Below, one piece after another: positions 40,815 through 50,529 of a DNA stretch of 64,000 nucleotides (the stretch's first letter is position 1; every line of letters starts with the position of its first letter). The translations under genes were made by a program, and so were the position numbers. The DNA is taken from the NCBI RefSeq assembly GCF_003056055.1, contig NZ_PYFP01000002.1, forward strand, positions 1,601,646 to 1,665,645, written 5' to 3'. This DNA is from Glaciimonas sp. PCH181 (GTDB lineage Bacteria; Pseudomonadota; Gammaproteobacteria; Burkholderiales; Burkholderiaceae_D). The notes under the pieces were generated by a model. It had not been told where the DNA came from and made no database searches. It saw nothing but the letters and a program-made list of their open reading frames with translations.

Positions 40815-41136
40815 GGCGCTAGTGTAAACGTAACGCTGGTTATCGTCCCATTCTGTAGGATGCCTCCCACGAAAATTGGGATATTTTCAGGCTGTCAGCT
40901 GCCTTTTGTCAGAATCCAGATAGTATCTTTTGTGAGTGAAACATTGATGTCGAGTAGTAATCTACAGCGTCATATTGGTAAAAACGATGCTGATCGTCGT
41001 CGCCCATTGCCTCTTAACAATCGCGCTTACAAAATAAATTGCGGATTCCTCGCGCTACCGTCACCTAGCGATTGTGCGTGGGTATAGTATGCGAAGTAAC
41101 CAAAAAATGTGCAGCATCTCTCTTAAGGAGATTTGT
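40815..41136. other. Divergent promoter region, DUF3108 / phaM
   Basis: 322 bp between divergent genes. An open frame at 40860-41087 has no recognisable family and no ribosome binding site. AAGGAG lies 6 nt before the phaM start codon. Confidence 0.5.
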
Positions 41137-41967
41137 ATGAGTAATCCTAATTTTCCCGGGGTAAATGTAATGTCGGACAGCGTTGATTTCATCAAAAAAA
41201 TGTGGGGTGGGATGAGTATTCCGGGCATGCCGGGGATGGTAGTACCGACTCTTTCAGTCGAGGAAATCGATAAAAAAGTCGCAGATTTGAAGGCGGTTGA
41301 AGGCTGGCTCAGTTTGAATTTGAATATGCTGCGCGGCACGATACAGGGGCTTGAAGTGCAAAGCGCCACATTGTCGGCGCTAAAGTCGATCGTTGCTATT
41401 AGCATGCCAACCGCAGATACCAAATCAGCGCCAAATTTTGGGGGGACATCAGCTGCTGACAGTGCAACCGGCGGCGCAGCTGCGTGGGCGGCGATGGCTT
41501 CGCAATTCCCTTTCTCGTTTATGCCCGACAAGGCCAAGGCTTCGGAGGAAAGTACGCCACAACCGGCGGCTGCGTTCACTTTCTCGCCACCGCCGCCACC
41601 GCAAGCGGAGGTTAGTCCCGCCGCTGAGAGCGCACCTTTAGCGAGCGATTCGGCTGCCGGTCAGAATGCCGCTAATCCGCAAGCCTCGCCGACCACTGCC
41701 TGGTGGGACGTCTTGCAAAATCAGTTTCAGCAAGTAGTCAGCGGTGTGATGGCAGCTGAGGCCAAAACTGCGAAAGAGGCAGCAGAGGAAGCGAAAGCCG
41801 CACCGAAGCCAAAAAGTAGCCCGCAGAGTAAAGGCGCCACGGTGAAGGCGGATGCTAAAACAAGTATTAAAGCCAGTCCAAAAACTAGCACTACTCCTAA
41901 AGCGAGGGTTAGTGGGGCTGCTAAAACCACCCCAACTACGCGGAAAAAAAAGGCAGTCACCAAGTAA
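41137..41967 (+). CDS. phaM: PhaM-like polyhydroxyalkanoate granule protein
   Basis: Granule-associated protein that in Ralstonia activates PHA synthase and ties granules to DNA. The N-terminal half matches PhaM: SVDFIKKMWGGMSIPGMPGM with the PGM repeat, then LSVEEIDKKVADLKAVEGW and LNLNMLRGTIQGLEVQSATL, an amphipathic helical region. The middle is Ala/Pro-rich. The C-terminus (about 205-276) is a Lys/Ala/Pro-rich, histone-like tail with KKKAVTK, suited to DNA binding. ATG at 41137 is chosen for AAGGAG 6 nt upstream; upstream residues in the frame have no homology. No phaC or phaP is in the window. Confidence 0.85.
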   Translation: MSNPNFPGVNVMSDSVDFIKKMWGGMSIPGMPGMVVPTLSVEEIDKKVADLKAVEGWLSLNLNMLRGTIQGLEVQSATLSALKSIVAISMPTADTKSAPNFGGTSAADSATGGAAAWAAMASQFPFSFMPDKAKASEESTPQPAAAFTFSPPPPPQAEVSPAAESAPLASDSAAGQNAANPQASPTTAWWDVLQNQFQQVVSGVMAAEAKTAKEAAEEAKAAPKPKSSPQSKGATVKADAKTSIKASPKTSTTPKARVSGAAKTTPTTRKKKAVTK

Positions 41968-42036: not shown

Positions 42037-42080
42037 TTCCCATCCTTCAGTTTGTAGAGAAGGATGGGAAGATAATTTTT
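42037..42080. terminator. Terminator between phaM and SnoaL-like gene
   Basis: Eleven-bp stem (ttcccatcctt / aaggatgggaa) with an 11-12 nt loop; a T-rich stretch (ataattttt) follows on the plus strand. It sits between convergent genes. Confidence 0.75.
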
Positions 42081-42093
42081 GCCCATTTTTTAC

Positions 42094-42552
42094 CTATTTT
42101 CGGGCTGCGCGTTTCAAAATCCTCATGAAACCGCCTAATACCGGCAATTTTTCATACAGTTCTTCTGCGGCATCCCAATAATCGCGATGATAAATGACAT
42201 AGCCCTCGCTGTCGAAGCGACAGTGCGTTGCGCCTCGGATGCATTGCTCAGCAGCGGAAAAACGTTTCATGCGAAAGTAAAAATCCCACGTCAAAAAAGC
42301 TGAATCATCCTGTCGCATATGATGCGTCACGACGAAACGCGGCCCGTCAACTTGCACAAACATGTGCGCAAATAGTTGCTTGATCGCGGGCAGGCCGGTA
42401 ACTTCGTTGAACGGATCCTTAAACCATGCATCTTGCGCGTAAACCAGCGGGATCAACTCAAGATTGACGGTTGATAAGGTTTCAAAGAAGGCGACCAGAC
42501 GTAATAGCGCTTGTTGCTGATTCTCTAATTTTTGGGGAGTATCGCGGCTCAT
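42094..42552 (-). CDS. SnoaL/NTF2-like protein
   Basis: A 152-aa cytoplasmic protein with a single NTF2-like cone fold: LVAFFETLSTVNLELIPLVY, DAWFKDPFNEVTGL, a central helix, then the beta sheet FLTWDFYFRMKRF and the typical end VIYHRDYWDAAEELYEKLP. Members of the family are enzymes or ligand-binding proteins; the role here is unknown. Its start overlaps the SDR stop by 4 nt, and it is the last gene of the fatty-acid-type operon. Confidence 0.85.
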   Translation of the reverse strand: MSRDTPQKLENQQQALLRLVAFFETLSTVNLELIPLVYAQDAWFKDPFNEVTGLPAIKQLFAHMFVQVDGPRFVVTHHMRQDDSAFLTWDFYFRMKRFSAAEQCIRGATHCRFDSEGYVIYHRDYWDAAEELYEKLPVLGGFMRILKRAARK

Positions 42553-43325
42553 AACCCGGTCACCTTATGTATCAATGCAAAATAGGCACGATAGGGTAGT
42601 AGGCGGGCGAATCGCAGCCAGTTAGTGAATCGTTTGGGAAAGTGTATATGGAAATGTCCGCGCTCAATACCCGAGATGAGTTTTTCTGCAGCGTTGGTCG
42701 GCGAGATCAGCGCAGGCATCGGAAAGTCGTTACCTGCGGTCAATGGGGTATCGACAAAGCCGGGGTTAATCAGATAAACGCCGATCCCGCGCGGTCGTAA
42801 GTCGAGATAAAGACATTCTGATAAATTGATCAGCGCCGCCTTGGTTGCCCCATACGCCATCGCTTTTGGCAGGCCGCTATAACCAGCGACAGAAGCCACA
42901 ATACCAATGGCACCGCTACCCTGTTTGAGCAAGATTGGCAATGTAGCATCAAGGCAATGCATTACTCCCCGAAGATTTAGATCGATTAAGCGATTGGCGA
43001 GCTTAAGATCAAAGCTATCGGCGCGCATTTCACCGTAACCACCGGCGACGACCAATATCAGATCGATGCCTTCCCATGCTTCGAGAATTTGGTCGCGCGC
43101 AGCGATCACGGTCGCGTGATCAGTAATATCGAGCACGCAGGTCAAGGCGTTGGGCAGGCCTGCTGCGATGTTGTGCAATCCGGCAGCAGTGCGCGCGGAT
43201 AACGCCACGCGCGCCCCCTTTGCCAATAGTTGTCGGGCGGTTTCTGCACCGATGCCGCTGGAGGCACCGATGATCCAGACACGTTGTTGCTGCCAGTTGA
43301 CGATCATTGGATTCATTGACTTCAT
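42549..43325 (-). CDS. Short-chain dehydrogenase/reductase
   Basis: A 258-aa NAD(P)-dependent oxidoreductase of the classical SDR family. The cofactor motif is VWIIGASSGIGAETARQL (TGxxxGxG type, with Ala for Thr), the active serine is in GIVASVAGYSG and the YxxxK pair in MAYGATKAALINLSE. VYLINPGFVDTPLT follows. The last 40 residues are hydrophobic and basic, possibly membrane-associated. It is the seventh gene of the operon; its substrate is unknown but lipid-related is plausible. Later ATGs at codons 4 and 7 are possible starts. Confidence 0.9.
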   Translation of the reverse strand: MKSMNPMIVNWQQQRVWIIGASSGIGAETARQLLAKGARVALSARTAAGLHNIAAGLPNALTCVLDITDHATVIAARDQILEAWEGIDLILVVAGGYGEMRADSFDLKLANRLIDLNLRGVMHCLDATLPILLKQGSGAIGIVASVAGYSGLPKAMAYGATKAALINLSECLYLDLRPRGIGVYLINPGFVDTPLTAGNDFPMPALISPTNAAEKLISGIERGHFHIHFPKRFTNWLRFARLLPYRAYFALIHKVTGL

Positions 43326-43383
43326 AGAATGACATTCATCTTTCCGATAGAGAGCCAGTATCTTCGGCTTTAAGCTGTTTACA

Positions 43384-43920
43384 TTAAGGGCGTTTAGTAA
43401 ACGACAGACTGATATCGCCCAATTTCACGCCAAATTTGCTCATTACGGCATGGTTGAGCATTACGCGCTGATCCATTTGCACCATTAAGTCATCGAGACT
43501 GACATTGATAATACGGCCATCGACCGGCAATGCCAGCACATATTTCCAGCGCAGCGTATTGCCGTCGGTAATGCCGATTGCTTCACCGACGATATCAGCC
43601 GCTGTGCCGATGAATTTGTTTGGCGCGACTTTTTTCAAGGTCCAGATACGGCGTTGTTTGGTGCCATCCGAATAGGTAAAGTTTTCATCTAGCGTCCCGG
43701 TGTCGCCATGCCATTGACAGTCGATGACGACCGTGAAGCGTTTCACCACTTTGCCGGAGCGATCCTGAAACATGCCCCACGCATCCAGGGTGCCATTGAA
43801 ATATTCCGGCAAACTGAGCGTCGGTTTTTGGTCGGCGTAACCGTCAGGTTCGGATGTCGTGCTACATCCACTTAACAAAATTGCGAGACTAATGAGTAGA
43901 AATTTCAGAAACGTTTTCAT
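43384..43920 (-). CDS. DUF3833 family lipoprotein
   Basis: A 178-aa protein with a lipoprotein signal peptide: FLLISLAILLSGCSTTSEPDG has the lipobox LSGC near residue 19. The rest is the DUF3833 domain: LPEYFNGTLDAWGMFQDRSG, VVIDCQWHGDTGTLDE, and at the end DLMVQMDQRVMLNHAVMSKF. The family is found with CFA-type genes in other proteobacteria and is of unknown function; it would sit on the inner or outer membrane. Spacing to neighbours is 56-58 bp. Confidence 0.88.
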   Translation of the reverse strand: MKTFLKFLLISLAILLSGCSTTSEPDGYADQKPTLSLPEYFNGTLDAWGMFQDRSGKVVKRFTVVIDCQWHGDTGTLDENFTYSDGTKQRRIWTLKKVAPNKFIGTAADIVGEAIGITDGNTLRWKYVLALPVDGRIINVSLDDLMVQMDQRVMLNHAVMSKFGVKLGDISLSFTKRP

Positions 43921-43976
43921 GTAGGACTCCGAAAGTGTGAGTGCTTAAGATGGTTTAAAAGGGCATGTCGATGGCC

Positions 43977-45233
43977 TTAGATATTCCGCAAAGGTGCCTT
44001 CCACAAAATCGCCGCCGCTACCAGTTTCAGCACACAGGGTAAAACGGCATAGCCAATTGCCAATGCCTGCGCGCCTTGCTGGTTCACAAGATGCGGGTGA
44101 TAGCCAAGATAGGCCAGTAATGGCAAAGAAATACCTGCGGCAAGCGCCAGATTGATTTTGGTCGCCCAGTTCCAGATGCCAAAATAAGCGCCTTCTTTTT
44201 GATGGCTATGGCCGCCGTTTGCGATGACTGCCGCAAGTAGCGCTGGCGGCAATAAAAGGTCGGCACCCAGCGCGAAGCCGGACATGATGCAGATTACGGA
44301 AAAGGGCAGCATATCGCCCGCAGATAAACCGTAAGCCCAGACGAAAGCGACGATCGCCAACAGCATCGCGCCAAACCAGACCCGTGCTTCGCCATAGCGT
44401 CGGGCCAATACCGCCCAGCCCGGCATGGATACCGCGCCAGCTAAGAAATACAGCATCAAAAACAAGCCGCCGTATTTGCCTAGTTGCAACTGATCATCGA
44501 CAAAAAAAAGAAACAACGTAGCGGGGATCGCCGCGGCTATGCCATTGACCACAAAGATAATGAAAAGCCAGCAAAAGCGCGGATTAAGAAACGGCAGCAG
44601 CACGCTGTGTTCAGTGGGTTTGTTTGCCTGTTCTGGAGATTGCTGCGTTGCCATTGCTGGCCGTGGCGCGATCTGTAATAACAGTGCTGTAGCAAACAAT
44701 AAAACGATAAAAACCGGTGGCAATAATCGCATCCCTAGCAGTCCGGGCAGAACCGCTGCGAGTACAACGCCAAGCAAGCCGCAGGCCTCGCGTGTTGCAG
44801 TTAGCCGCGCGCGTTGGTCCTGCGCCTGGGTCAATGCTGCGCCCCAACTTTGATGCGCGATTGTGGCAATACTAAAACCAACATACACCACCAGCAGTGC
44901 CAATACTAACCAGACTATCGGTAACGATTGGACGAATGTGGGCGGCAAAAATAGTGCACTGAAACCGATGGCTAATAATGGTGCTGCAATCCAGATAGCC
45001 GTTTTGTATTTGTCCTTGATGGTGGCGCGGTCAAGGCAGCGACCAATTGCGGGATCAATGAAGGCGTCGAACAAGCGCGTTACCAGCAAAACGAGGCCAA
45101 TTAACGACAGTGAAATGCCAAATCGATCCGCATAAAAGGCGGGAATGTAGACATATACCGGCAACGCGACGAGTGCCAACGGCAATCCGAACAGCCCATA
45201 TTTCAGGAGAGCGGGGAAGGCTAGCTTAGTCAT
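43977..45233 (-). CDS. MFS transporter of the GPH/MelB-like type
   Basis: A 418-aa inner-membrane protein with about 12 hydrophobic segments. It opens KYGLFGLPLALVALPVYVYIPAFYADRFGISL and has LFDAFIDPAIGRCLDRA, the acidic motif of the glycoside-pentoside-hexuronide/MelB branch (D in DAFIDPAIG). The substrate is unlikely to be a sugar just because of this relation. Its start overlaps the chalcone-isomerase-like stop by 4 nt. The operon context suggests lipid or lipid-precursor export, which is inference. Confidence 0.87.
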   Translation of the reverse strand: MTKLAFPALLKYGLFGLPLALVALPVYVYIPAFYADRFGISLSLIGLVLLVTRLFDAFIDPAIGRCLDRATIKDKYKTAIWIAAPLLAIGFSALFLPPTFVQSLPIVWLVLALLVVYVGFSIATIAHQSWGAALTQAQDQRARLTATREACGLLGVVLAAVLPGLLGMRLLPPVFIVLLFATALLLQIAPRPAMATQQSPEQANKPTEHSVLLPFLNPRFCWLFIIFVVNGIAAAIPATLFLFFVDDQLQLGKYGGLFLMLYFLAGAVSMPGWAVLARRYGEARVWFGAMLLAIVAFVWAYGLSAGDMLPFSVICIMSGFALGADLLLPPALLAAVIANGGHSHQKEGAYFGIWNWATKINLALAAGISLPLLAYLGYHPHLVNQQGAQALAIGYAVLPCVLKLVAAAILWKAPLRNI

Positions 45234-45868
45234 TGTCGCGGTGTTGCTGTCGATGTCGGTGCCGGTGCCGTTGTTGGTGCCGCATCAGTCAACAATTTTT
45301 TGCGCAATGAGGCGTCAGTTGTTTTTGGCGATAACCAGATACCGAAAAAGGCTTGGGCGAATTTTGGATCGGCGATTTCTCCCACCGTTTTTCCGTTGAA
45401 ATAGAAACGTGCGCCGATGCCAGGCAGAAAGACGCCGGTAATGTGCGATCCTTCGACGACGTTAGGAAAAATGGCTTTCATTTGCGTTAACCACGGGCCG
45501 TAATCGGCTTCACTGCCGCTGCCGATTTTCCGCATCTGATCGATGCTGCTTTCGGCAATCTTGGCTCCCTCAAATGCGCGGGCATAACGCAAGTCGAGCG
45601 CATAACTGGCGGCATCGGGCGTCGACGTTTGATAGCCTTTATCGCCGACCCAAAGTTGTGCGTCATAAATGGATAAACCAAACCAGCGAAAACGTCCTTC
45701 CCCCGCTAAGCGCGCGTTGGCGATGGCGTGCTGAATATGCGGGGGCGCGCTGATTACTGTATCGGCTGCGCGAGCATGATTGAGCATGGCCAACATCAGC
45801 GCGCAGCCTAATAAATAGCGCGTCCATTGTAGAAATGAACTGTGTGGCAGGACGCTTGCCCGTATCAT
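45230..45868 (-). CDS. Chalcone isomerase-like family protein (exported)
   Basis: A 212-aa protein with a signal peptide (about 1-34, LLGCALMLAMLNHARAAD). The mature part is a chalcone-isomerase-fold domain: EGRFRWFGLSIYDAQLWVG, ALDLRYARAFEGAKIAESS, YFNGKTVGEIADPKFAQAFF. Bacterial members are of unknown function; plant FAP relatives of this fold bind fatty acids. ATG at 45868 overlaps the CFA gene stop by 4 nt; upstream residues in the frame have no homology. It probably acts in the periplasm on a lipid. Confidence 0.84.
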   Translation of the reverse strand: MIRASVLPHSSFLQWTRYLLGCALMLAMLNHARAADTVISAPPHIQHAIANARLAGEGRFRWFGLSIYDAQLWVGDKGYQTSTPDAASYALDLRYARAFEGAKIAESSIDQMRKIGSGSEADYGPWLTQMKAIFPNVVEGSHITGVFLPGIGARFYFNGKTVGEIADPKFAQAFFGIWLSPKTTDASLRKKLLTDAAPTTAPAPTSTATPRQ

Positions 45869-47118
45869 ATTTTTTGAAGCGTAATTTGCGCGACATTGAT
45901 ACTGCCAGCCAGGAATCCGGCTTCGCAATACGCCAGATAGAAATCCCATGTACGCAAGAAACGGTCGTCAAAACCTTGTGCGCGAACACGCGGCAAATGC
46001 TCTTTAAAAGCGCGACGCCATTCAACTAGCGTACGTGCATAATCGTGACCGAACGACAGACTATCGACGACGCGTAAGCCGTGTTTCTCTGCCTGTATGC
46101 GAAATGCGGAAGGCGATGGCAGCATGCCGCCGGGGAAAATGTATTGCTGGATAAAGTCAGTGCCGCGACGATAGCGCTCGAACAATTCGTCGGCAATCAC
46201 AATCGTCTGAATGCATGCACGACCGCCGGTTTTCAGATTGCGGGAGACGCAAGCGAAATAACTCGGCCAGTATTTTTCACCGACGGCTTCGAACATCTCG
46301 ATAGAAGCTATGCCGTCGAACTTGCCATCGACGTCGCGATAGTCTTGCAGTAGCAGTTCTACTTGGTCAACGATGCCGACTTCTTGCAATCGTTGGTTAG
46401 CAAAATTGAGTTGTTCGGTGGAGAGCGTCAGTCCGGTAACATGGGCTTTTCCTTCGCGCACGGCAATCTCGGCAAAGCCCCCCCAACCGCAGCCGATTTC
46501 TAACACGCGGGCGTTATCGGAGAGGTGTAGCTGATTGAGGATGCGGCGATATTTTGCGTCTTGCCCCTGCTGCAAATTTTCGACATGATCGTCTGAAAAT
46601 AGGGCGCTGGAATACGTCATCGAAGGATCGAGCCAGAGCTGATAAAAGTCATTCCCGATATCGTAATGCGCGTGAATATTTTTACGACTGCCGTGCTTAC
46701 TATTACGGTTGAATAGATGCTTGACGCGATACAGCAAATTGCCCCACCAGGTGCCGTAAATGACCGACTCAATGACTTGCCGGTTGCGAATGAACAATTC
46801 TATTAATCCCGGCAGATTGTCGGTGCTCCAATGTCCGTCGATGAAGGTTTCGGCAAAGCCGATGTCGCCCGATTTTAGCGCAGCGTGGAACACATCCCAA
46901 TTCGTCAGCGTCATGGTGATCGGACGTACTCGCTTATCGTTGACATTGCCGTAAGTGGCAGACTGTCCGTCTGGAAAATGCATGACCAATATGCCATGCT
47001 CCAGCTTGCGCAACAACGTCAGAATGAACTGTACCTGAGGAGGAAAATTTTGGGTCGAGATGCGACTATTGTCTTGCGCAAAATCGAACGCACTGCTGCG
47101 GGTAGAGTTAGTATTCAT
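45865..47118 (-). CDS. Cyclopropane-fatty-acyl-phospholipid synthase-type methyltransferase
   Basis: SAM-dependent methyltransferase of the Cfa family, 417 aa. The SAM motif is VLEIGCGWGGFAEIAV (about residue 185), followed by HVTGLTLSTEQLNFANQRL. The catalytic region has SIEMFEAVGEKYW and the C-terminal FPGGMLPSPSAF. The N-terminal 100-residue domain is the smaller lipid-binding domain of this family. It is in an operon with a flavin oxidoreductase and DUF1365, as are UfaM-type enzymes that methylate unusual fatty acids, so it need not make cyclopropanes. Its start overlaps the DUF1365 gene stop by 4 nt. Confidence 0.9.
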   Translation of the reverse strand: MNTNSTRSSAFDFAQDNSRISTQNFPPQVQFILTLLRKLEHGILVMHFPDGQSATYGNVNDKRVRPITMTLTNWDVFHAALKSGDIGFAETFIDGHWSTDNLPGLIELFIRNRQVIESVIYGTWWGNLLYRVKHLFNRNSKHGSRKNIHAHYDIGNDFYQLWLDPSMTYSSALFSDDHVENLQQGQDAKYRRILNQLHLSDNARVLEIGCGWGGFAEIAVREGKAHVTGLTLSTEQLNFANQRLQEVGIVDQVELLLQDYRDVDGKFDGIASIEMFEAVGEKYWPSYFACVSRNLKTGGRACIQTIVIADELFERYRRGTDFIQQYIFPGGMLPSPSAFRIQAEKHGLRVVDSLSFGHDYARTLVEWRRAFKEHLPRVRAQGFDDRFLRTWDFYLAYCEAGFLAGSINVAQITLQKI

Positions 47119-47954
47119 CTTGATATCTCGCTCGAAGGGGGATGAGGTTTGCTGTAAAAAGGAAGCCGCTTACGCCATAGTTTTAGCGCTTGCCAATGGA
47201 TACGAAGAATGATGCCGACGGTCATCATCGGATACTGAAAAAATGCACGTGCGATAGCACGATTTGACAGCGATTGCGGTAGCGCGGCGGTGCCGGAAAC
47301 ACTGGTCAGTAATAGTGGACCGGTGGCATCGTCGTATTCGATGCGGGCGGTCGTACATTCGACTAGTTGCGCGCCACCGTTAGCGCCGTGTGTCTCGCCA
47401 TTGCTATTTTCCGCGCGCATGAATCGAAAACGATACGTTCCTGCTACTTCGCAGAACGGTGAGACATGAAATACTTTATCGGCATGTAGTTCGATGCCGA
47501 AGCCGATTTGGCCGTTTTCTTGCGTGCTGCCGTCCAGCAAATAACTATGATGCTCACCAAAAGTGTTTCGAACTTCGCACAATACTGCACGCAGACTACC
47601 GTCGCGACGATGACAAAACCAAAACGAGACAGGATTGAAAACATAGCCCAGCACACGGGGAAATGTTTGCAGCCAGATTTCTCCATCGGCGTCGCTGATC
47701 CCCTGTTGTAACAACATGCCTTCGATCCAGGCCAGAGGGGTTTGTTGGCCATCGCCATAGTCGCGATCATGAAACGACAGAAAATTGAGTTTATTGCGTG
47801 AGAAAAAACGACTCTTAAAGCCCGATTGCGCCAGTGTGCGTAACGGCAGGCGCAGGTAATACACGCCATACGTAAATGCATGGTGGATTGGACGCAAGCG
47901 CGTATGGCGAACTGTGCCAAAACATAGCTGGACTTGATTGGCTGAGGAGGGCAT
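47115..47954 (-). CDS. DUF1365 domain protein
   Basis: A 279-aa protein of the DUF1365 family, which nearly always sits with a CFA gene and an amine-oxidase-like flavoprotein. Family blocks: LCFGTVRHTRLRPIHHAFTY at the start, LPRVLGYVFNPVSFWFCHR (with FNPVSFW), and VFHVSPFCEVAGTYRFRF. No catalytic residue is established. There is no signal peptide. It lies 15 bp after the flavoprotein gene and ends in the CFA start (4-nt overlap). It likely takes part in the fatty-acid modification, which is inference. Confidence 0.9.
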   Translation of the reverse strand: MPSSANQVQLCFGTVRHTRLRPIHHAFTYGVYYLRLPLRTLAQSGFKSRFFSRNKLNFLSFHDRDYGDGQQTPLAWIEGMLLQQGISDADGEIWLQTFPRVLGYVFNPVSFWFCHRRDGSLRAVLCEVRNTFGEHHSYLLDGSTQENGQIGFGIELHADKVFHVSPFCEVAGTYRFRFMRAENSNGETHGANGGAQLVECTTARIEYDDATGPLLLTSVSGTAALPQSLSNRAIARAFFQYPMMTVGIILRIHWQALKLWRKRLPFYSKPHPPSSEISR

Positions 47955-47969
47955 GTTTTCGCTCCGGCC

Positions 47970-49307
47970 TTAAGCTGTAACGCTCTCGATGGCGGAAGCG
48001 CGCATCGGCATAGTTTGTGGGGCGAAATGGGGCAGATTCTGAATCGCATTGGCTACTGCCAATCCAGAGGTCAGACCGTCTTCGTGAAATCCATAACCCA
48101 GCCATGCACCGGCGAACCAGGTATTGTTTTTACCTTGCATGTTGGCAAACTGCGGTTGGGCTTCAATCGCGGCGGCATCGAATATCGGATGGGCGTAATC
48201 GAAGCGCTGTATCACGGTGTGCGGCTTGGGTTGTTCGATCGGATTGAGCGAAACAATCAACGGCGTTTTGAACGGTAACGGCTGCAATTGATTCAGCAAA
48301 TAGTGCACGCACACCTGCGGATCGCTGCCGTTCTGACTTTGATAATTCCAGGCGGCCCACGCTTTGCGGTTGTTTGGTAGCAGGCTGTAATCGGTGTGGA
48401 GTACGGCATGATTCGGCTGATACTGAATCGCTGATAATAGCCGTTTCTCCTTTTCAGTAGGATCATCCAGCAACTGTAAACTTTGGTCACTATGCCCGGC
48501 CATGACGACGTGATCATAGCGATGCGCGCCGTTAAGGGTTTGAATCATCACCTGACGCCGACCCTCGTAGTAAAGGCGACGCACGCCCGTTACGGGTGTT
48601 CGCAGGTATTTATTAGGAATTCCGGCGAGTAATTTGTCCACATAATGCTTAGCTCCGCCTTTTACGGTCCGCCATTGCGGCCGATCGCTGACTTGTAATA
48701 GACCATGGTTATGACAAAAGCGGATGAAGCTGGCGACAGGAAAAGCCAGCATTTGCGCAGTTGGGCAGGACCAGATGCAACCGGCCATCGGCAATAAGTA
48801 CCAGTTTTTGAACGCATCGCTATAGCGGTTACGTGACAAAAAATCGCCTAACGACAGGTTTGCAAGGGGTGATTCACTGTTATTGGCGATCTCGGTTGCT
48901 TGCTTATTAAAGCGCAGGATGTCGCGAAGCATCCACAGATATTGCGGGCTGAGCAAATTGCGGCGTTGCGTAAATACACTGTCCAGATTCGTGCCAGACC
49001 ATTCCAGCGTGCGCTTGCCGAACCGTCCATTGACAGGTATTTTTGCCGAAAATGACATGTCGGTGGCGGCAGTGTCCACCCCTAACTCGGCAAATAGATG
49101 GACTAATTTGGGGTAAGTACGATGATTGAACACGAGAAACCCCGTGTCTACGCCGTAGGTATGTCCCTCAAGTGTGACGTCAACGGTATTTGTATGGCCG
49201 CCAAAATAGTTATTCGCCTCATAAAGGGAGACTTGATGACCGCCTTGCGTCAAGCGGTAGGCGCTGGAGAGGCCGGAAATGCCGGAACCGATAATTGCGA
49301 TTTTCAT
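47970..49307 (-). CDS. FAD-dependent amine-oxidase-family oxidoreductase
   Basis: A 445-aa flavoprotein with the ADP-binding motif MKIAIIGSGISGLSSAYRLTQ and LYEANNYFGGHTNTV, continuing GVDTGFLVFNHRTYP. The C-terminal FAD motif is WFAGAWLGYGFHEDGLTSGL. The family includes carotene desaturases and the UfaD-type fatty acid desaturase. It is the first gene of the operon; ATG at 49307 follows AGGGAG, while an upstream ATG (49364) adds 19 residues before the Rossmann motif. Likely substrate is a membrane fatty acyl chain, inferred from its neighbours. Confidence 0.9.
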   Translation of the reverse strand: MKIAIIGSGISGLSSAYRLTQGGHQVSLYEANNYFGGHTNTVDVTLEGHTYGVDTGFLVFNHRTYPKLVHLFAELGVDTAATDMSFSAKIPVNGRFGKRTLEWSGTNLDSVFTQRRNLLSPQYLWMLRDILRFNKQATEIANNSESPLANLSLGDFLSRNRYSDAFKNWYLLPMAGCIWSCPTAQMLAFPVASFIRFCHNHGLLQVSDRPQWRTVKGGAKHYVDKLLAGIPNKYLRTPVTGVRRLYYEGRRQVMIQTLNGAHRYDHVVMAGHSDQSLQLLDDPTEKEKRLLSAIQYQPNHAVLHTDYSLLPNNRKAWAAWNYQSQNGSDPQVCVHYLLNQLQPLPFKTPLIVSLNPIEQPKPHTVIQRFDYAHPIFDAAAIEAQPQFANMQGKNNTWFAGAWLGYGFHEDGLTSGLAVANAIQNLPHFAPQTMPMRASAIESVTA

Positions 49308-49662
49308 CTGCTTGGTACTCCCTGGAGCCGTGTTAATTCTTTTATATAGACGCCCTGACTGCACAATTGGTAATGCAGATTAAGGTCATACGTAGCGTTG
49401 AGGCAATTGGATTCAAAAATAAATTAGTGATATTTTTGGCAATATTTTTTTGGGTCGAATCTAAAACGGCGGTCCCAACGTATATAGAATGAGAAGTTAG
49501 AACGAGAAGTCGATGAAAAGCGACATTCATGGTCGGAAGTGGCCCAGAACGGGCAATATTTCCTCAATGTCTTATGAAAACTGATTGCCCTAAAGCTTAT
49601 AAATAGGTTGCCAAGGCAATTCTTGGTAAAATCAGGGACTTAACTCAACTTGTAAGGTATGT
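49308..49662. other. Divergent promoter region upstream of the operon
   Basis: 355 bp between the FAD oxidoreductase (-) and the di-iron protein (+). A minus-strand -10-like tatataaa lies near 49339-49346. I saw no clear match to the extracytoplasmic sigma promoter expected for such operons, and no gene in it. Confidence 0.5.
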
Positions 49663-50529
49663 ATGCTGTATCCAGAATTGTTTAAATCGCTGGAACAAGT
49701 CCGATGGAACATGGAGACTGACATTCCGTGGGACAAGTTCGATGCTTCCCAACTTTCCGACGAGCAGGCTCAGACGATTCGCATGAATGCGATTACAGAA
49801 TGGTCAGCATTGCCTGCAACAGAGATGTTTTTGCGCGATAACCATGGCGATAGCGATTTCTGCGCTTTCATGTCGGTTTGGTTTTTTGAAGAGCAAAAGC
49901 ATTCGCTGGTGTTGATGGAATATCTGCGTCGTTTCCGTCCAGAACTGGTGCCGACAGAAGAAGAGTTGGACAATGTTCGCTTCGAATTCGACCCTGCGCC
50001 GCCGCTAGAAACCCTGACGATGCACTTTTGCGGTGAAATTCGCCTCAATCATTGGTATCGCTGCGCATCCGATTGGCATACCGAGCCTGTTATCAAGCAT
50101 ATTTATAAAATCATCAGCCAGGATGAAGCCCGTCATGGCGGCGCTTATTTGCGCTACATGAAAAAGGCTTTGGTTGAAGTTGGCGATAGCGCTTCAGCTG
50201 CATTCGCCAAGATTGGTGTTTTGATGGCTTCTGCTCGCCGTACCGAGAAACCCTTGCATCCGACAAATCTGCACGTAAACAAAATGTTGTTCCCGAACGA
50301 CACGGTCCAAAGCCGTTTGCCTGACCCTGAATGGTTAGAGCGTTGGTTGGATGAGCAGATTAAGTTTGATGGCGTCTGGGAAAAGAAAGTAGTTGATCGG
50401 ATTCTGCATAACATGTCGCTGCTGTTCGAGCGTAGCTTCGGGACCGTGCAGGAATTGAACCGATATCGTAAAGAAATTGTTGCACGACTAGCTGCCGCGG
50501 CTGTTGTACCGCCAGTCGTCATCGGTTAA
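49663..50529 (+). CDS. Di-iron ferritin-like / acyl-ACP desaturase-like protein
   Basis: A 288-aa all-helical protein with two metal-ligand pairs: WFFEEQKHSLVLMEYL (EExxH, about 80-88) and SQDEARHGGAYLRYM (DExxH, about 158-164), as in ferritin-like carboxylate-bridged di-iron enzymes. Further possible ligands are in TEWSALPATEMFL. It resembles soluble acyl-ACP desaturases and related di-iron proteins. It is divergent from the fatty-acid operon by about 355 bp, which makes a lipid role attractive but unproven. It starts with ATG after a weak TAAGG. A terminator follows at 50626. Confidence 0.85.
   Translation: MLYPELFKSLEQVRWNMETDIPWDKFDASQLSDEQAQTIRMNAITEWSALPATEMFLRDNHGDSDFCAFMSVWFFEEQKHSLVLMEYLRRFRPELVPTEEELDNVRFEFDPAPPLETLTMHFCGEIRLNHWYRCASDWHTEPVIKHIYKIISQDEARHGGAYLRYMKKALVEVGDSASAAFAKIGVLMASARRTEKPLHPTNLHVNKMLFPNDTVQSRLPDPEWLERWLDEQIKFDGVWEKKVVDRILHNMSLLFERSFGTVQELNRYRKEIVARLAAAAVVPPVVIG

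What the first reader, a model, noticed from the sequence alone, without database searches (positions are those of the whole stretch)
42094..50529. Eight-gene lipid-modification-type operon with CHI-like, MFS and di-iron partners
FAD amine-oxidase-type, DUF1365 and CFA-type genes are packed with a chalcone-isomerase-like exported protein, an MFS transporter, a DUF3833 lipoprotein, an SDR and a SnoaL-like protein; four junctions overlap by 4 nt, so they act as one unit. Known relatives make unusual (furan) fatty acids or belong to singlet-oxygen regulons. Here the rpoE-chrR sigma pair is missing nearby, and a divergent di-iron desaturase-like gene may be a ninth member. The combination suggests a membrane fatty acid is desaturated, methylated, and then oxidised or exported.
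Basis: partly seen in the sequence, partly recalled or inferred. Interest (0 to 1): 0.75.

Follow-up and report, generated by a model that had tools for sequence, protein, structure and literature searches.

The report
Sigma-K-controlled furan fatty acid operon
A nine-gene set in an Oxalobacteraceae bacterium probably makes furan-containing membrane fatty acids that protect against reactive oxygen, and its promoters suggest that a SigK-type sigma factor, rather than the regulators known for such genes, switches it on.

Summary
In detail: eight co-directional genes, four 4-nt overlaps, plus a divergent di-iron gene. UfaD (FAD), UfaO (DUF1365) and UfaM (CMAS-type) fit the furan-fatty-acid pathway; UfaM carries Ser/Ala/Gln where true cyclopropane synthases carry Cys/His/His, and the genome holds a separate true Cfa. 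The operon is common in Betaproteobacteria (colinear in 57 of 57 loci examined), so its gene content is not new. Its wiring is. The genome shows no LitR and no above-cut-off ChrR. Divergent GAATCY-N16-CGTAT promoters face the operon and the di-iron gene; both recur in all four genomes of the genus (this one included) with the orthologous operon, while spacers diverged. The motif also precedes a fasciclin and an alpha/beta-hydrolase gene, and occurs 47 times in 80 relatives' sigK-rskA loci (permuted controls: mean 0.3). A SigK-RskA pair, whose signal and role are called unknown in mycobacteria, is therefore the likely regulator; in Tsukamurella and Caballeronia it sits beside ufaD-ufaO-ufaM. 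This genome's own sigK locus lacks the motif, and a second SigK pair was not tested. The di-iron protein has an acyl-ACP-desaturase-like fold and is often linked to the operon; its reaction is unknown. Nothing here is experimental.

The parts
42094..42552 (-). SnoaL_2/NTF2-like protein, last gene of operon
   Evidence: PF12680 46.4 bits; present in 49 of 57 ufaD loci
42549..43325 (-). SDR oxidoreductase (counterpart of RSP1087)
   Evidence: PF00106; 50 of 57 loci; RSP1087 named SDR in PMC7074977
43384..43920 (-). DUF3833 lipoprotein-like protein (likely counterpart of RSP1088 by position)
   Evidence: PF12915 213 bits; 51 of 57 loci
43977..45233 (-). MFS_2 / GPH-symporter-like transporter (counterpart of RSP1089)
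   Evidence: PF13347 223 bits; TIGR00792 gph 110.6 bits, below cut-off; 46 of 57 loci
45230..45868 (-). Chalcone-isomerase-like protein, probably exported (signal-peptide-like N terminus)
   Evidence: PF16036 60.4 bits; 51 of 57 loci; export inferred from sequence only
45865..47118 (-). ufaM: CMAS-type fatty-acyl methyltransferase with Ser171/Ala278/Gln304 in place of Cys139/His240/His266 of E. coli Cfa
47115..47954 (-). ufaO: DUF1365 protein, predicted furan-forming oxygenase
   Evidence: PF07103 268 bits; UfaO carries DUF1365 (PMC7380195)
47970..49307 (-). ufaD: FAD amine-oxidase-type protein, predicted desaturase of the 11-methyl acyl chain; first gene of operon
   Evidence: PF01593 64.9 bits
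49388..49414 (-). ECF-type promoter GAATCC-N16-CGTAT facing the operon
49457..49483 (+). ECF-type promoter GAATCT-N16-CGTAT facing the di-iron gene
49620..49632 (+). TTCTTGGTAAAAT, extended-minus-10-like element 30 nt before the di-iron gene, possibly a second, basal promoter
   Evidence: exact in this genome, three congeners and the ufaD-less relative G006 (L152)
49663..50529 (+). Di-iron protein with soluble acyl-ACP-desaturase-like fold; proposed ninth member
   Evidence: PF03405; ligand set invariant; nearest solved folds stearoyl-ACP desaturases; linkage

Best explanation
The operon makes 11-methyl furan fatty acids on membrane phospholipids. UfaM methylates cis-vaccenoyl chains (SAM), UfaD desaturates the product to a conjugated methyl-diene, and UfaO inserts an O2-derived oxygen to close the furan ring (steps shown by others in R. 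sphaeroides and R. palustris, inferred here by family, order and active-site residues). The other five genes are accessory: probably handling or repair of modified or oxidised lipids (inferred). Transcription of the operon, and additional transcription of the divergent di-iron gene, starts from GAATCY-N16-CGTAT promoters recognised by a SigK-type ECF sigma factor (most likely C6:24247, held by an RskA anti-sigma), together with a fasciclin and an alpha/beta-hydrolase gene. Release of SigK by oxidative or membrane stress (its two redox-type cysteines are conserved) would raise furan fatty acids, which scavenge singlet oxygen and radicals. The di-iron protein probably performs an extra O2-dependent step on acyl chains or maintains the supply of unsaturated chains (inferred, weakest step).
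For: Pathway: functions of UfaM, UfaD and UfaO in PMC7380195 (passages); the same three families adjacent here. UfaM signature: Ala278 and Gln304 in 54 of 54 order relatives and in 7 of 7 named plasmid homologues (six in ufaD-ufaO clusters, Roseicitreum alone), against Cys/His/His in an E. coli Cfa and the genome's own Cfa; tree keeps 24 UfaM-type proteins apart from 3 others (local support 0.80). Same eight genes in order in Azoarcus and Cupriavidus plasmids. Promoters: paired divergent motif in 4 of 4 genomes of the genus (this one and three congeners) with the orthologous operon, boxes 10-11 of 11 identical while spacers share 2-9 of 16; also at ufaD of G671; same motif at fasciclin 4 of 4 and hydrolase 4 of 4, and at 4 of the 5 fetched fasciclin genes with 65% identity or more (own included; 0 of 25 more distant ones). 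Sigma: 47 motifs in 39 of 80 sigK loci; spacings 10, 12, 14, 15, 17 and 18 give 0, spacings 20 and 22 give 3 and 4, 40 permuted versions a mean of 0.3 (maximum 3). They precede sigK itself (3), DUF3034 (8), fasciclin (1); 33 others were not labelled by my queries, two of them scanned as DUF4331 and a TonB receptor. Nearest solved relative of the sigma is M. tuberculosis SigK (78.2 bits), R. sphaeroides RpoE next (71.3); Cys137/Cys187 in 80 of 80. sigK-rskA adjoin ufaD-ufaO-ufaM in Tsukamurella and Caballeronia (RskA_C in both), with CCATCC-N16-CGAA and GCATCC-N16-CGTA sites found by a permissive pattern without control. No sigma-70-like promoter of the scan falls in the intergenic region.
Against: No experiment. 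This genome's two sigK loci (6 kb each) and the G. immobilis sigK locus carry no exact motif, so the link is by orthology. The second SigK-RskA pair (C1:2399843) was not tested in the same way and could be the true partner. 41 of 80 sigK loci show no exact motif. The motif was noticed by eye before it was tested; the genus-wide and sigK-locus tests came after. Many relatives have LitR in the locus and no such site. R. capsulatus has a SigK/RskA-like pair induced by singlet oxygen but, by that paper, no homologues of RSP1087-1091 (PMC7074977), so the sigma does not need this operon. The di-iron gene occurs without ufaD (41 of 127 genomes), has its own conserved proximal element and lacks the motif in the four fetched loci without an adjacent operon. 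R. sphaeroides deletions show three accessory genes dispensable for furan synthesis.
Confidence: 0.7

Rival explanations
1. The operon is light-controlled through LitR, as reported for Pseudomonas and likely in many Burkholderiales, and the GAATC motif is incidental.
For: A LitR-like hit lies in the fetched stretch of 34 of 57 ufaD loci, often between the di-iron gene and ufaD; the query has MerR and B12-binding domains; Pseudomonas ufaM is light-induced next to a LitR gene (PMC9758184, passages).
Against: No LitR homologue in this genome at E 0.001 with one query; paired motifs conserved in 4 of 4 genomes of the genus with the orthologous operon.
Confidence: 0.07
2. A different ECF sigma (the second SigK-RskA pair, C1:2399843, or another) reads the motif.
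For: Both pairs have RskA_C anti-sigmas and SigK as best solved relative; this genome's C6 sigK locus lacks the motif.
Against: Strong enrichment at 80 loci encoding relatives of the C6 sigma; no comparable test was made for the other pair.
Confidence: 0.2
3. The CFA-type gene is an ordinary cyclopropane synthase and the operon only adjusts membrane fluidity.
For: CMAS family; the Cfa equivalog models give high scores, though below their cut-offs.
Against: Substituted active-site residues, separate Cfa with the usual residues at C2:554439, adjacency to ufaD and ufaO.
Confidence: 0.05
4. The di-iron gene is only a syntenic neighbour (an rfaE2-linked gene) and no part of the system.
For: In the four fetched loci without an adjacent operon (two genomes without ufaD, two with it elsewhere) it lies near rfaE2 and a phasin-like gene; 41 of 127 genomes have it without ufaD; own proximal element.
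Against: Linked within 15 kb in 57 of 86 genomes that have both, in two arrangements (43 divergent, 14 same strand); of the 29 others, 22 have the genes on different contigs. 11 of 40 linked loci lack rfaE2. SigK-type motif at the gene in 4 of 4 genomes of the genus with the operon.
Confidence: 0.35
5. The transporter, DUF3833 and CHI-like proteins export or traffic the modified lipid.
For: Signal-peptide-like and lipoprotein-like N termini, conserved order.
Against: RSP1087-1089 deletions do not change cellular fatty acids, though export was not measured in the passages seen.
Confidence: 0.2

Closest known systems
R. sphaeroides RSP1091-1087 operon with ufaM (RSP2144), ECF11 RpoE-ChrR regulon
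   Same: ufaD, ufaO, GPH-type symporter, RSP1088, SDR in the same order; regulon also holds a fasciclin gene and folE2
   Different: There ufaM is elsewhere and rpoE-chrR adjoins; here ufaM, CHI and SnoaL genes are in the operon, no above-cut-off ChrR in the genome, promoter GAATCY not TGATCC
LitR-linked ufa cluster (Azoarcus KH32C pAZKH; Pseudomonas)
   Same: Azoarcus has the identical eight genes in order
   Different: Divergent MerR with B12-binding domains there; none found here
SigK-RskA regulon (M. tuberculosis; mpt83-sigK-rskA cassette of Yersinia)
   Same: SigK/RskA pair, fasciclin target, cysteine pair; M. tuberculosis sigK is autoregulated from the Rv0449c promoter (PMC7509140; PMC5547695)
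   Different: Here sigK is unlinked to these targets; motif is GAATCY-N16-CGTAT; targets include the di-iron gene. That Rv0449c-Rv0447c are UfaD/UfaO/UfaM-like is recalled, not tested
Soluble acyl-ACP desaturases (PF03405)
   Different: About 15% identity, shorter, nearly confined to the order; R2-like oxidases score within 2 Z units

Membership tests
Furan fatty acid operon (UfaD-UfaO-UfaM) | FAD oxidoreductase, DUF1365 and CMAS-type genes adjacent and co-directional | tested here: met
   genes present are colinear in 57 of 57 loci
Furan fatty acid operon (UfaD-UfaO-UfaM) | Produces 11Me-12t-18:1, methyl-diene and 9M5-FuFA | not testable with these tools
   needs GC-MS
UfaM rather than Cfa | Departure from the Cys/His/His active-site set of Cfa | tested here: met
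   Ser171, Ala278, Gln304; Ala278 and Gln304 in 54 of 54 relatives, residue 171 Ser 40, Ala 13, Cys 1. Not checked on an experimentally verified UfaM
ECF11 RpoE-ChrR regulon | ChrR anti-sigma in the genome | tested here: not met
   no match over cut-off, best E 0.03
ECF11 RpoE-ChrR regulon | TGATCC-N16-CGTA promoter | tested here: not met
   GAATCC/T instead; TGATCC sites found as controls in Azospirillum (both directions), Rhizobium (sigma side only) and Qingshengfaniella (three sites)
LitR regulon | LitR/MerR-B12 regulator in the genome | tested here: not met
   no match at E 0.001 with one query
SigK-RskA regulon | SigK and RskA_C pair in the genome | tested here: met
   two pairs
SigK-RskA regulon | Promoter motif shared with sigK loci | tested here: met
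   47 in 39 of 80 relatives' sigK loci, permuted controls mean 0.3; absent from this genome's own sigK loci
SigK-RskA regulon | Fasciclin (MPT83-type) target | tested here: met
SigK-RskA regulon | SigK dependence of transcription | not testable with these tools
   needs mutant or in vitro transcription
Soluble acyl-ACP desaturase (PF03405) | Pfam model over cut-off and ExxH di-iron pattern | tested here: met
   32.1 bits; E54, E77, H80, E125, E155, H158 invariant in 27 aligned
Soluble acyl-ACP desaturase (PF03405) | Desaturase activity on acyl-ACP | not testable with these tools
   needs enzymology

The most novel reading that the evidence does not exclude
SigK-RskA is, across Actinobacteria and Betaproteobacteria, a membrane photo-oxidation sigma system one of whose core outputs is furan fatty acids; in Oxalobacteraceae it has also recruited an order-specific di-iron desaturase-fold enzyme that performs an undescribed further step, giving a new furan or related lipid. 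This would give the SigK regulon a purpose and predict singlet oxygen as its signal.
Probability: 0.3. Interest if true: 0.8.

Novelty: new variant of a known kind. Interest (0 to 1): 0.57.

Why it matters
Passages seen here state that the signal of SigK-RskA is unknown (PMC7509140) and that little is known of the role of the SigK regulon (PMC5547695). Finding furan fatty acid genes as conserved SigK-type targets, with an exact promoter motif and conserved cysteines, turns that into a simple test with light, singlet oxygen and GC-MS in a soil bacterium. It also shows the same lipid defence placed under three kinds of regulator (ChrR-type, LitR, SigK-type), and names a di-iron protein family as a candidate oxygen-dependent partner.

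Tried and rejected

Paper searches that used SigK as a term. None of the listed papers, in what I saw (listings, and passages of PMC7074977, PMC7509140, PMC9861118, PMC5547695 and PMC4821874), joins SigK with furan fatty acids; PMC7074977 holds both words. Other searches: (no paper for Glaciimonas with furan). Subscription papers are mostly not held; Veyrier 2008 was not held.

The 57 ufaD loci are the window plus 56 fetched loci, not a random sample: 40 were chosen because the di-iron gene is linked, and some are cut by contig ends. Co-occurrence assumes that searches drew the same 300 genomes (handles agree). Of 26 motif sites in four congeners I fetched 23. One search found 118 relatives and kept the best 80.
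Full report
What is there. Eight minus-strand genes run from 49307 down to 42094, with a plus-strand gene at 49663-50529 beyond a 355-nt intergenic region. Pfam assigns an FAD amine-oxidase-type protein, DUF1365, CMAS, Chalcone_3, MFS_2, DUF3833, SDR and SnoaL_2, and the divergent protein to FA_desaturase_2. Four junctions overlap by 4 nt. The window belongs to G000:C2:1601646-1665645. Its genus is most likely Glaciimonas: the congener G665 shares two contig lengths (71775 and 358436) with Glaciimonas immobilis.

What the core does. In R. sphaeroides, UfaM (CFA-like), UfaD (FAD, RSP1091) and UfaO (RSP1090, a DUF1365 protein) convert cis-vaccenate chains to 11Me-12t-18:1, then a methyl-diene, then the furan 9M5-FuFA with an oxygen from O2; R. 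palustris RPA2571-2569 are needed for the same lipid there (PMC7380195, passages). RSP1091-1087 continue with a GPH-family symporter, a hypothetical protein and an SDR (table in PMC7074977), the order found here, with ufaM, a CHI-like gene and a SnoaL gene added. Deleting RSP1087, 1088 or 1089 did not change the fatty acid profile, so the corresponding genes are probably accessory.

UfaM, not Cfa. Aligned with a Cfa from an E. coli plasmid record, the window protein has Ser171, Ala278 and Gln304 at Cys139, His240 and His266, and keeps Glu277, Ile306 and Tyr360; the role of several of these residues as the bicarbonate site of Cfa is recalled. Among 54 order relatives Ala278 and Gln304 are present in all, and residue 171 is Ser in 40, Ala in 13 and Cys in 1. 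Seven of seven named plasmid homologues (six in ufaD-ufaO clusters, Roseicitreum alone) show Ser/Ala/Gln, while the E. coli Cfa and this genome's own Cfa (C2:554439) show Cys/His/His. Four further clusters keep the Ala and Gln motifs, Cupriavidus having Ala for Ser. A small tree of 27 keeps 24 UfaM-type proteins together (local support 0.80). I could not include an experimentally verified UfaM.

How common the operon is. In 300 genomes of the order, ufaD-like proteins (E 1e-60) occur in 144 and the di-iron protein (E 1e-20) in 127. In 57 ufaD loci (the window and 56 fetched, not a random sample), the operon genes present are colinear on one strand in 57, and all eight are present in 44; ufaO is found in 56, ufaM 55, CHI 51, DUF3833 51, SDR 50, SnoaL 49, MFS 46, LitR-like 34, FolE2-like 20. 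Azoarcus KH32C and Cupriavidus pinatubonensis carry the same eight genes in order. The gene content is therefore ordinary for Betaproteobacteria.

The regulator. Elsewhere these genes are tied to RpoE-ChrR (PMC5507510, PMC3818230, PMC6852236, passages) or to LitR (PMC9758184, passages). This genome has no ChrR over the cut-off and no LitR match with the one query used. The intergenic region contains two divergent sites, GAATCC-N16-CGTAT towards the operon and GAATCT-N16-CGTAT towards the di-iron gene. They resemble the ECF11 site TGATCC-N16-CGTA, which my controls recover in Azospirillum (both directions), Rhizobium (sigma side only) and Qingshengfaniella (three sites). In the three congeners with the orthologous operon the pair recurs; over the four genomes the boxes are 10-11 of 11 identical and the 16-nt spacers 2-9 of 16. 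The same exact motif precedes a fasciclin gene (4 of 4) and an alpha/beta-hydrolase gene (4 of 4), and a DUF3034 gene in the three congeners but not, as an exact site, in this genome. A fourth congener, G667, has a different operon copy (55% ufaD identity); the 15 kb fetched there hold neither the motif nor the di-iron gene. A sigma-70 scan lists nothing in the intergenic region.

Which sigma. Ten genes pass the sigma70-ECF model in this genome; by my reading three are housekeeping-type and seven ECF. Two are followed by RskA_C anti-sigmas, C6:24247 and C1:2399843, and both have M. tuberculosis SigK as nearest solved relative, with R. sphaeroides RpoE second. Eighty loci encoding relatives of the C6 sigma (56-91% identity, best 80 of 118, all with an RskA match) contain the exact motif 47 times in 1.62 Mb, in 39 loci. 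Spacings of 10, 12, 14, 15, 17 and 18 give none, 20 and 22 give 3 and 4, and 40 permuted versions give a mean of 0.3, maximum 3. The sites precede sigK itself (3), DUF3034 (8) and fasciclin (1); 33 precede genes my queries did not label, two of which scan as DUF4331 and a TonB receptor; 2 have no ORF close by. So the motif behaves as a SigK-type promoter. The sigma keeps both cysteines, 50 residues apart, in 80 of 80, matching the pair mutated in M. tuberculosis SigK (C133, C183; PMC7509140; redox role cited in PMC5547695). Independent support comes from Tsukamurella, where ufaD-ufaO-ufaM-lipocalin-sigK-rskA form one run, and Caballeronia NK8, where sigK-rskA-DUF1295-CMAS-lipocalin-ufaD-ufaO-ufaM do, with NNATCC-N16-CG(T/A)A sites found by a permissive, uncontrolled pattern. 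R. capsulatus RpoE/ChrR, induced by singlet oxygen, are described as SigK/RskA-like, but that species is said to lack RSP1087-1091 homologues; fasciclin genes with putative SigK sites are light-induced in M. kansasii (PMC9861118). Against: this genome's sigK loci have no exact motif near them, 41 of 80 relatives show none, and the second SigK type was not tested.

Verdict. The enzyme core fits a known furan fatty acid pathway; the SigK-type wiring and the di-iron partner make it a new variant. Every functional step in this organism is inferred.

Noticed in passing
window 49339-49355 (minus strand, 5' leader of ufaD): GGGCGTCTATATAAAAG just upstream of ufaD is nearly conserved in the three congeners, beyond the promoter boxes; possible leader or regulator site.
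   Followed up: no
L251, L256, L265 and G000:C2:826693: An alpha/beta-hydrolase gene shares the SigK-type motif in this genome and three congeners; Streptomyces and Rhodococcus ufa clusters also contain an alpha/beta hydrolase.
   Followed up: partly
L306-L356: DUF4331-type and TonB-receptor-type genes recur beside the motif at sigK loci of Duganella and Massilia; one of each was scanned.
   Followed up: partly
G667:C1:758924-760174 (L272): A congener carries a different, 55%-identical ufa operon; the 15 kb fetched hold no di-iron gene and no motif, which may point to horizontal replacement.
   Followed up: no
[not shown]
   Followed up: partly
L106-L151: Many ufa loci of the order also hold LitR-, FolE2-, photolyase-related and glutathione-peroxidase-like genes, like a photo-oxidative stress island (LitR checked by Pfam, the other names recalled from sequence).
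   Followed up: partly
window 42039-42068: Hairpin CCCATCCTTC/GAAGGATGGG (10-nt loop) followed by T-rich DNA on the plus strand, possibly the terminator of the phasin-like gene 41074-41967 (read; not listed, whose loop limit is 8).
   Followed up: no
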